64,000 bases of DNA from Actinomycetota bacterium (GTDB taxonomy: Bacteria > Actinomycetota > Thermoleophilia > RBG-16-64-13): positions 162,277 to 226,276 of the forward strand of contig JADQBG010000015.1 of assembly GCA_016278725.1 (NCBI GenBank). The letters are read 5' to 3'. A model generated the notes under the pieces. That model did no database searches. It was not told the DNA's origin and saw nothing but the letters and a program-made list of their open reading frames with translations. Both the position numbers and the translations under genes were made by a program. Positions 1,484-2,892 of this stretch are shown here, piece by piece (position 1 is the stretch's first letter; each line of letters opens with the position of its first letter).

Positions 1484-1552
1484 AGCTCTCCCCTTGGAAA
1501 TCTTTGTGATCATGCCGGAAGTGACGTGCCGGATACGCCGGCCGCGAATCTC

Positions 1553-1573
1553 TCTCCCCCTAGAGGGGGAGCA
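1553..1573 (-). promoter_or_regulatory. Attenuator hairpin overlapping the leader stop codon
   Basis: CTCCCCC and GGGGGAG form a perfect 7-bp stem around a four-base loop that includes the leader stop codon. No T-run follows, so it is not a classic intrinsic terminator. The leader segment GCTCTCC (its Ala-Leu codons) is also complementary to GGAGAGC in the leuA Shine-Dalgarno region. That allows mutually exclusive structures and fits control of translation or of termination. Confidence 0.55.
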
Positions 1574-1610
1574 GCAGGAGAGCGCTTGTAGTGAGCCGCG
1601 GCAAAGACAT
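1560..1610 (-). CDS. leuL: Leucine-rich leader peptide of leuA (attenuator)
   Basis: A 16-residue ORF, MSLPRLTTSALLLLPL, with seven leucines, four of them consecutive. It ends 76 bases before the leuA start. The ORF track hides it as the tail of a 79-aa shadow ORF. It has no clear Shine-Dalgarno site, but its ATG lies just downstream of a good promoter match, which suggests a leaderless transcript. Leu-rich leaders of leuA are an established class of attenuator; function here is inferred from sequence. Confidence 0.8.
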   Translation of the reverse strand: MSLPRLTTSALLLLPL

Positions 1611-1616
1611 GGGCGA

Positions 1617-1647
1617 GCAGTGTAGAACAACCCGCCCTCGGGAGCAA
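1617..1647 (-). promoter_or_regulatory. Promoter of the leuA leader (leaderless)
   Basis: On the minus strand TTGCTC and TACACT are separated by exactly 17 bases. The leader-peptide ATG begins nine bases after the -10 box, close to where transcription would start. Both hexamers keep the strongest consensus positions. Confidence 0.5.
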
Positions 1648-1683: not shown

Positions 1684-2892
1684 TTAGGGCTGGTGGCGCT
1701 CGGCCATCGGCTCGTACGTGCACTCCTCAGGTCCGCAGTAATGCCCCACGTAGCGCGCCAGCGGGCGGTAGAGCGCCGGTTTTTCCGCCGCTTCGGCAAA
1801 GCGTTCCTCGATGCAGTGCGCGCACCAACCGGCCACGCGGCTCATGGCGAAAACCGGGGTGAAAAGGTCGACGGGAATCCCCATCATGTAGTAGAGCGAC
1901 GCCGAGTAGAGATCGACATTGGGATAGATGTCCTTGCCCTTCAACTGCCGGAAGATCCGCCGCGTGCTCTTCTCCACTTCTTGGGTCAGTTTGAGCCAGT
2001 GGAGGTCCCGGTCCCCCCCCAACTGCCTGATCAGATCCTGCAGAATCAATGAGCGGGGGTCGTAGGTGGCGTACACCCGGTGCCCCATGCCCATGATCTT
2101 CTCTCCGCGGCTGAGCCTTTCCTCGATATAGCCCTCCACCCGGTCGGGCTCCTGGATCTCGAGCAGCATCTCCATCACCCGGGAGTTCGCGCCCCCGTGC
2201 AGTTCGCCGGAGAGTGCCCCGATAGCCGCGGCCACGGCCGAATACGTGTGCGCGCGGGTGCTGGTGACTGCCCGGGCCACGAAGGTCGAGGCGTTCATCG
2301 AGTGGTCGGCGTGAAGCAGCAGAGCGACGTCCAGCAGGTGGGCGACTTCCTTATCGGGGGTCTCCCCCGACAGCATTCGCAGGAAATCGGCGGCGTGGTC
2401 CAGTTCGGGGTCCGCCTCTATCGGCTCCAGCCCCGAACGGAGACGGTGATAGGCCGCCACCAGCGTGGCCATCTTGGCGGTCAGGTCCACGGCGCGTTCG
2501 CGCACCGCTTCCTTTGAGTCGTCCGGCCGAGGATCGCCCATCTTCAGAAGCGGCACCGCAGCCTGCAGGAAATCCATCGGGCGAAGGTCCTGCGGATACT
2601 GCCGAACCAATTCGAGGATATGCGGCGAAACCTGCCTGCGCTCACCCAACCGGTGATGCAGACGACCATACTCGCTGTCCAGGGGCAGGTCGCCGTAGAG
2701 CAGCAGGAAGACAACCTCCTCGAAGTCCGACCGGGCCGCGAGCGTCTGGATATCGTAGCCCCGATAGACGAGGCGGCCCTCTTCGGCCTGAACGTCGCTG
2801 ATCTTGGTATCGGCCACGGTGATTCCGCGCAGACCCACGTTGGTGGTGTCCGGCCGACCGTTCGACATATCGGGAGTGCTGGTTACTTCCAC
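1684..2892 (-). CDS. gltA: Citrate synthase family protein
   Basis: 402 aa. Condenses oxaloacetate (or a related 2-oxoacid) with acetyl-CoA at the entry of the TCA cycle. The catalytic residues of the family can be placed: His232 in LHGGAN, His271 in GMGHRVY and Asp327 in NVDLYSASLYY. The HADHSMNASTFVAR motif is also present. The length suits the shorter Gram-positive type rather than the NADH-inhibited proteobacterial type. GTG start at 2892, with GAGAGAGGG six bases upstream. It stands alone, upstream of leuA on the same strand, and is divergent from the NYN gene. Sequence alone does not exclude 2-methylcitrate synthase, but no prp genes are nearby. Confidence 0.9.
   Translation of the reverse strand: MEVTSTPDMSNGRPDTTNVGLRGITVADTKISDVQAEEGRLVYRGYDIQTLAARSDFEEVVFLLLYGDLPLDSEYGRLHHRLGERRQVSPHILELVRQYPQDLRPMDFLQAAVPLLKMGDPRPDDSKEAVRERAVDLTAKMATLVAAYHRLRSGLEPIEADPELDHAADFLRMLSGETPDKEVAHLLDVALLLHADHSMNASTFVARAVTSTRAHTYSAVAAAIGALSGELHGGANSRVMEMLLEIQEPDRVEGYIEERLSRGEKIMGMGHRVYATYDPRSLILQDLIRQLGGDRDLHWLKLTQEVEKSTRRIFRQLKGKDIYPNVDLYSASLYYMMGIPVDLFTPVFAMSRVAGWCAHCIEERFAEAAEKPALYRPLARYVGHYCGPEECTYEPMAERHQP

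What the first reader, a model, noticed from the sequence alone, without database searches (positions are those of the whole stretch)
1484..1647. Leucine attenuator of leuA on a leaderless transcript
A 16-residue ORF with seven leucines (four in a row) precedes leuA. Its ATG sits at the expected transcription start of a 17-bp-spaced promoter, with no ribosome site. A hairpin covers its stop codon. The leader's GCTCTCC can also pair with the leuA Shine-Dalgarno region (GGAGAGC), while the proximal GGGGGAG competes for the next leader segment. A ribosome stalled at Leu codons would then free leuA. Without a T-run after the hairpin, control of translation is as likely as control of termination.
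Basis: partly seen in the sequence, partly recalled or inferred. Interest (0 to 1): 0.75.

Follow-up and report, generated by a model that had tools for sequence, protein, structure and literature searches.

The report
Leaderless leucine leader controlling leuA
Upstream of the first leucine-biosynthesis gene sits a tiny leucine-rich reading frame that starts at or next to the 5' end of its mRNA and folds onto the gene's ribosome site; the arrangement is conserved across the actinobacterial class Thermoleophilia and is most likely a leucine-sensing switch related to the known LEU element.

Summary
On the minus strand a 16-codon ORF (MSLPRLTTSALLLLPL*, 1610-1560) lies between a TTGCTC-17-TACACT promoter and leuA (ATG 1483). 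Relatives add strong support. Leaders of 82 related leuA genes carry a near-invariant UCCCCC-N4-GGGGGA hairpin over the end of a Leu-rich ORF. In 69 of 82 a TANNNT box lies 6-10 nt before the leader start (control ATGs 3.3%), and 68 of 70 such ATGs open the Leu frame. A base stem joins the Leu codons to the leuA ribosome-site region and co-evolves (0 of 200 swaps as good in Solirubrobacterales; 3 of 200 in the window's family). A second hairpin and a short pseudoknot show compensatory changes. This matches the organisation of the LEU element described for other Actinobacteria (Seliverstov 2005) and the mapped leaderless LeuL1 of Streptomyces lividans, but the inner fold differs: our model does not detect Streptomyces-type elements, and Rfam has no match. 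Relatives also carry the element before leuC, leuB, leuS-leuA2 and type-2 leuA. Translation attenuation is the likeliest mechanism, because the window's family lacks a T-run. It is untested, and the computed gain in ribosome-site exposure on stalling is modest (0.28 to 0.45 unpaired).

The parts
1642..1647 (-). -35-like hexamer TTGCTC
   Evidence: sequence; TTGC at 17-18 nt from the -10 box recurs in the window's family and in f3, TTGAAA in f6
1619..1624 (-). -10 hexamer TACACT, 17 bp from the -35 and 8 nt before the leader ATG
   Evidence: TANNNT 6-10 nt before the leader start in 69 of 82 relatives against 3.3% of control ATGs
1560..1610 (-). leader ORF (leuL-like) MSLPRLTTSALLLLPL*, effectively leaderless
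   Evidence: 68 of 70 leaderless-type ATGs in relatives are in the Leu frame and open
1577..1583 (-). P0 5' strand GCUCUCC, inside the Leu-coding part
   Evidence: pairs with 1491-1485; own versus swapped partners in relatives
1565..1571 (-). P1 5' strand CUCCCCC
   Evidence: near-invariant in relatives
1554..1560 (-). P1 3' strand GGGGGAG; the UAG stop (1562-1560) spans loop and stem
   Evidence: near-invariant in relatives
1543..1545 (-). candidate pseudoknot 5' strand GCG, pairing with CGU in the P2 loop (weak in this genome)
   Evidence: all three pairs change together in four Solirubrobacterales sequences; A-U for G-C in L017 and L018
1528..1542 (-). P2 hairpin GCCGG-CGUAU-CCGGC; loop 1537-1535 is the pseudoknot 3' strand
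   Evidence: paired in all rows of A1 and A2; compensatory pair in L071, L081, L092
1485..1491 (-). P0 3' strand GGAGAGC, inside the leuA SD region (AAGGGGAG, 1495-1488)
   Evidence: sequence; the folded ensemble pairs the SD region with the leader at 0.54 in the free state and 0.00 when a ribosome covers the Leu codons
1..1483 (-). leuA, 2-isopropylmalate synthase, 5' part (runs off the window start)
   Evidence: NF002086 703 bits and TIGR00973 679 bits, both over cut-off

Best explanation
It is a leucine-responsive leader of leuA that most likely works by translation attenuation. Transcription starts at or within about 3 nt of the leader ATG (inferred), and ribosomes enter the leader without an SD. 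When charged leucyl-tRNA is plentiful the leader is translated and released; its Leu-codon stretch then pairs with the leuA SD (P0), enclosing a hairpin over the leader stop (P1) and a second, pseudoknotted hairpin (P2), so leuA is poorly initiated. When leucyl-tRNA is short the ribosome lingers on the Leu codons and covers the P0 5' strand, which frees the SD. Shown here: the ORF, the conserved leaderless geometry, conserved P1, P2 and pseudoknot, and co-evolving P0. Inferred: response to leucine, the transcription start, and action on translation.
For: -10 box/ATG geometry in 69 of 82 relatives against 3.3% control, 2 of 69 with an SD-like motif. 68 of 70 such ATGs in the Leu frame. P0 own versus swapped partners: Solirubrobacterales -22.6 against -19.3 kcal/mol, 0 of 200 swaps as good; window's family 3 of 200; f6 8 of 200. 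Compensatory pairs in P2 and pseudoknot. A model built only from other families finds this site as its only reported match in the genome, E 1.7e-5. No terminator-like hairpin with a T-run in the window's family, 0 of 14. Blocking the Leu codons abolishes SD:leader pairing (0.54 to 0.00). Precedents: S. lividans LeuL1, mapped leaderless and without terminator (PMC8079986); leaderless poly-Cys leaders acting as attenuators in mycobacteria (Canestrari 2020, known from its title and one sentence in PMC13236596).
Against: The computed rise in SD exposure is modest (0.28 to 0.45 unpaired), because a weak local hairpin partly replaces P0. P0 co-evolution is not significant in family f3 (91 of 200). 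In Solirubrobacterales the P0 3' strand mostly ends 14-20 nt before the start codon, clear of the SD, so simple SD masking does not cover them. In S. coelicolor, mutations in the leuA leader peptide had an effect not consistent with classical attenuation (reviewed in PMC1262725). No expression data exist for this organism.
Confidence: 0.68

Rival explanations
1. Transcription attenuation: leader translation decides between a terminator and an antiterminator, or exposes the leader to Rho.
For: Some relatives have a terminator-like hairpin next to a T-rich stretch: 2 of 9 in f6 and 2 of 8 in f3 by a strict scan, and T-rich tracts follow P2 in f6 generally. Leucine transcription attenuation of leuA is assumed in C. 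glutamicum (PMC8709942).
Against: 0 of 14 in the window's family and 0 of 53 in Solirubrobacterales have such a terminator. P0 sits on the SD in the window's family and f6.
Confidence: 0.2
2. The folded element is a binding site for a protein or another ligand, and leader translation is secondary (the proposal made for LEU elements in 2005).
For: P1 keeps its sequence almost unchanged while its loop varies, more than base pairing alone needs; leader-codon mutations in S. coelicolor were not consistent with attenuation (PMC1262725).
Against: The Leu run, its frame and the -10/ATG spacing are all conserved, which a pure binding site would not need.
Confidence: 0.1
3. Chance: a CU-rich stretch that happens to encode Leu and to complement a purine-rich SD.
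For: Any CU-rich Leu run is partly complementary to AGGAG; folding energy z is only -0.91.
Against: Shuffles give the ORF with a placed -10 box once in 5000; class-wide conservation and partner-specific pairing.
Confidence: 0.02

Closest known systems
LEU element upstream of leuA in Actinobacteria (Seliverstov et al. 2005, PMC1262725)
   Same: Leu-run leader ORF, base stem between the Leu codons and the leuA SD, internal pseudoknot, no terminator, upstream of leuA.
   Different: Here the inner fold is a UCCCCC-N4-GGGGGA hairpin followed by a pseudoknotted second hairpin; the model built from it gives no significant match in Streptomyces-type leaders. It precedes type-1 leuA in most relatives, and sometimes leuC, leuB or leuS. 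In Solirubrobacterales the base stem mostly misses the SD.
LeuL1 leader of Streptomyces lividans leuA (PMC8079986)
   Same: MRFGLLLLSCRGEGL*, transcribed leaderless, no typical terminator; the identical peptide is found in L120 and L121.
   Different: Different inner hairpins, and the downstream gene in L120 and L121 is type-2 leuA (PRK03739).
leuL of Corynebacterium glutamicum (PMC8709942, PMC4046766)
   Same: Leader peptide MTSRANLLLLRRGGSQRS* before leuA, four consecutive Leu.
   Different: Treated there as transcription attenuation.
Leaderless poly-Cys short ORFs of mycobacteria (Canestrari et al. 2020, known here only from its title and a sentence in PMC13236596)
   Same: Leaderless leader ORF rich in the regulated amino acid; translation attenuation in M. 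smegmatis.
   Different: Cysteine genes, no known homology.

Membership tests
[quoted passage not shown]
LEU element (Seliverstov 2005) | base stem between the Leu codon run and the SD of leuA | tested here: met
   GCUCUCC:GGAGAGC in the window; swap test in its family 3 of 200; SD paired with leader 0.54
LEU element (Seliverstov 2005) | two internal helices forming a pseudoknot | tested here: inconclusive
   A pseudoknot J12:P2 loop is supported in relatives but is short in the window, and the published alignment is a figure not held, so equivalence could not be checked
LEU element (Seliverstov 2005) | sequence-structure homology with published members | tested here: inconclusive
   R2 gives no significant match in Streptomyces-like leuA loci (best E 1.6); leader peptides ending LLLLPLRGE and LLLLSCRGEGL look alike but common descent was not tested
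Classical transcription attenuator | intrinsic terminator (GC-rich hairpin plus T-run) before the gene | tested here: not met
   no T-run after P1 or P2 in the window's family, 0 of 14; the two calls of the simple scan lie in the promoter and inside leuA
Leaderless leader ORF | start codon at or within a few nt of the transcription start, no SD | tested here: inconclusive
   conserved -10/ATG spacing and no SD; the 5' end itself was not mapped
Any Rfam family | match at gathering score | tested here: not met
   none in the whole window, none credible at relaxed threshold

The most novel reading that the evidence does not exclude
A distinct RNA family of the Thermoleophilia, not in Rfam, that runs a leucine regulon (leuA of both types, leuC, leuB, leuS) in which the leucine-sensing codons themselves form the mask, and whose near-invariant UCCCCC/GGGGGA hairpin and pseudoknot do more than fold, for instance by slowing the leader ribosome or binding a protein, since in Solirubrobacterales the base stem does not cover the SD.
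Probability: 0.25. Interest if true: 0.6.

Novelty: new variant of a known kind. Interest (0 to 1): 0.42.

Why it matters
It extends leaderless amino-acid leaders and LEU-type control of leuA to a poorly studied class, and supplies about a hundred natural variants with co-evolving pairs. The unresolved question of how leuA leaders of Actinobacteria work (leader mutants gave results not consistent with classical attenuation) becomes testable by defined helix swaps in cultured members such as Conexibacter or Solirubrobacter. The shift of the base stem from on the SD to upstream of it gives a natural experiment on how such leaders block translation.

Tried and rejected
Rfam at gathering and relaxed thresholds: nothing credible. 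One alignment across all families mis-registers P2 between Solirubrobacterales and the window's family, so separate models were built. P0 counted on the fixed MAFFT alignment gives only 65% pairs because the register slides; the alignment-free swap test replaced it. The second-best model hit in the window's own genome (C19, E 0.02) lies beside no leucine gene and lacks the leader and hairpin: rejected. Other class hits without the hairpin pattern (for example L245, L260, L273, L280) were rejected as chance. The leuC of the window's own genome and of its sister has no such leader. Sliding a masked ribosome along each leader raised mean SD exposure only slightly (f1 0.32 to 0.42, f6 0.25 to 0.35, Solirubrobacterales 0.43 to 0.53, f3 no clear change), so it is weak support only. 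A survey of the window and 16 kb more for leaderless starts was not informative: 2 of 42 genes show such a start, 21 show only an SD.

Full report
What is there. On the minus strand, 73 nt separate the end of a citrate synthase gene from the leader ATG; they hold a sigma-70-like promoter (TTGCTC, 17 bp, TACACT) whose -10 box ends 8 nt before the ATG. The ATG opens a 16-codon ORF with seven Leu codons; 76 nt after its stop begins leuA. The leader's stop codon lies in a perfect hairpin (P1, CUCCCCC-UCUA-GGGGGAG), and GCUCUCC in its Leu part can pair with GGAGAGC in the leuA SD region (P0). The simple promoter scan does not list the promoter, because its two hexamers together miss the scan's threshold.

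Where it comes from. The closest named relatives are uncultured Actinomycetota (95% identical LeuA in isolate LH_M23; RBG_16_64_13) and, further off, Solirubrobacter and Conexibacter. One 'same class' genome (G247) has a contig of 435,968 bases, the length of the Conexibacter arvalis contig that carries its leuA; NCBI places that species in Thermoleophilia. The window's genome is therefore taken to belong to that class (inference).

Conservation of the leader. Upstream of leuA nearly every actinobacterial relative shows UCCCCC-N4-GGGGGA, while the Syntrophomonas, Armatimonadota, Chloroflexi and cyanobacterial leuA genes do not. The hairpin overlaps the end of a Leu-rich ORF that stops in its loop (window's family and some others) or just after it. 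A TANNNT box stands 6-10 nt before an in-frame start in 69 of 82 leaders against 3.3% of 4460 control ATGs, and only 2 of the 69 have an SD-like motif. When the frame is left free, 68 of 70 such ATGs open the Leu frame. The ATG-to-hairpin distance varies from 34 to 145 nt, yet the box stays with the ATG. A transcription start at or within about 3 nt of the ATG is the simplest reading, and it was not measured.

Pairing. Duplex energies between the leader and the region before leuA are better for true partners than for partners swapped within a clade: Solirubrobacterales -22.56 against -19.33 (sd 0.40, 0 of 200), window's family -18.91 against -17.28 (3 of 200), f6 8 of 200, f3 91 of 200. In the window's family and f6 the 3' strand is the SD and reaches the start codon in most members. 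In Solirubrobacterales the stem is often longer, about 15-20 pairs, but mostly ends 14-20 nt before the start codon, with a separate SD between. P1 barely varies. P2 and a three-pair helix between the P1-P2 linker and the P2 loop are paired in all 49 Solirubrobacterales sequences, the three-pair helix with all three pairs exchanged together in four of them, perhaps one event. In the window's family 95% of those cells pair, with A-U replacing G-C in two. In the window itself this helix is weak.

Independent recognition. A covariance model made only from Solirubrobacterales finds the window's site as the only reported match in its genome (E 1.7e-5). The model from the window's own family matches it at 1.9e-18, with nothing else credible there.

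Regulon. Extra copies in relatives lie before leuC (G006 and G012, same family as the window), before leuS in a leuS-leuA2 arrangement (G026), before a leuB-like gene (G020, G262), and before type-2 leuA (G025, G225, G238, and L126), with G025 carrying one copy before each leuA type. All are leucine genes, which supports a leucine function independently of the leader peptide. The window's genome has only the leuA copy.

Mechanism. There is no T-run behind P1 or P2 in the window's family. In the folded ensemble of the window's leader the SD region is paired with the leader at 0.54; covering the Leu codons with a ribosome-sized mask removes this and raises mean SD exposure from 0.28 to 0.45. The direction is as expected and the size is modest. 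The proposal is that a stalled or slow ribosome on the Leu codons frees leuA, while a released leader re-masks it. Control at termination remains possible in the f6 and f3 families, where some leaders have a hairpin next to a T-rich stretch.

Comparison. The organisation is that of the LEU element described in 2005 for other Actinobacteria: Leu-run leader ORF, base stem between the Leu run and the SD, pseudoknot inside, no terminator (PMC1262725). The leaderless state is mapped for LeuL1 of S. lividans (PMC8079986), and four consecutive Leu codons precede leuA in C. glutamicum (PMC4046766). The inner fold here is different from that of the Streptomyces-like loci, and no held paper was found that reports it for Thermoleophilia. 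I therefore file it as a new variant of a known kind: it works like a LEU element, while common descent with published members is not shown.

Noticed in passing
L223 (G012:C217:12207-12304), L224 (G006:C1:1237007-1237104), L336: The same kind of leader precedes leuC in two genomes of the window's family, with a degenerate Leu-poor version in a third (G003); the window's genome and its sister lack it.
   Followed up: yes
L225 (G026:C85:25860-25958): The element precedes leuS, with type-2 leuA right behind leuS, so one leader may control both; 29 other class leuS loci checked have none.
   Followed up: yes
L226 (G025:C1:1295527 and 1297454): One genome carries type-1 and type-2 leuA side by side, each with its own copy of the element.
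   Followed up: partly
L229 (G020:C1:55137-55235), L233 (G262): The element precedes a leuB-like gene; an ilvC-like gene lies about 3 kb downstream in G020.
   Followed up: partly
L019-L025, L038, L039 (family f6): P2 is followed by T-rich stretches, so a terminator version of the leader may exist in this sister family.
   Followed up: partly
L040-L111 (Solirubrobacterales): The base stem is long and co-evolving but its 3' strand mostly ends 14-20 nt before the leuA start, clear of the SD; how it would block leuA is unexplained.
   Followed up: partly
L067, L093, L099 (records titled Bifidobacterium breve), L089 (titled Chlamydiae bacterium): Their leuA genes and leaders are of Thermoleophilia type, so these public metagenome records look mislabelled or mis-binned.
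   Followed up: no
window 1684-2892 (-): A type II citrate synthase gene ends 73 nt upstream of the leader ATG on the same strand, so some leuA transcripts could be read through from it and carry a long leader.
   Followed up: no
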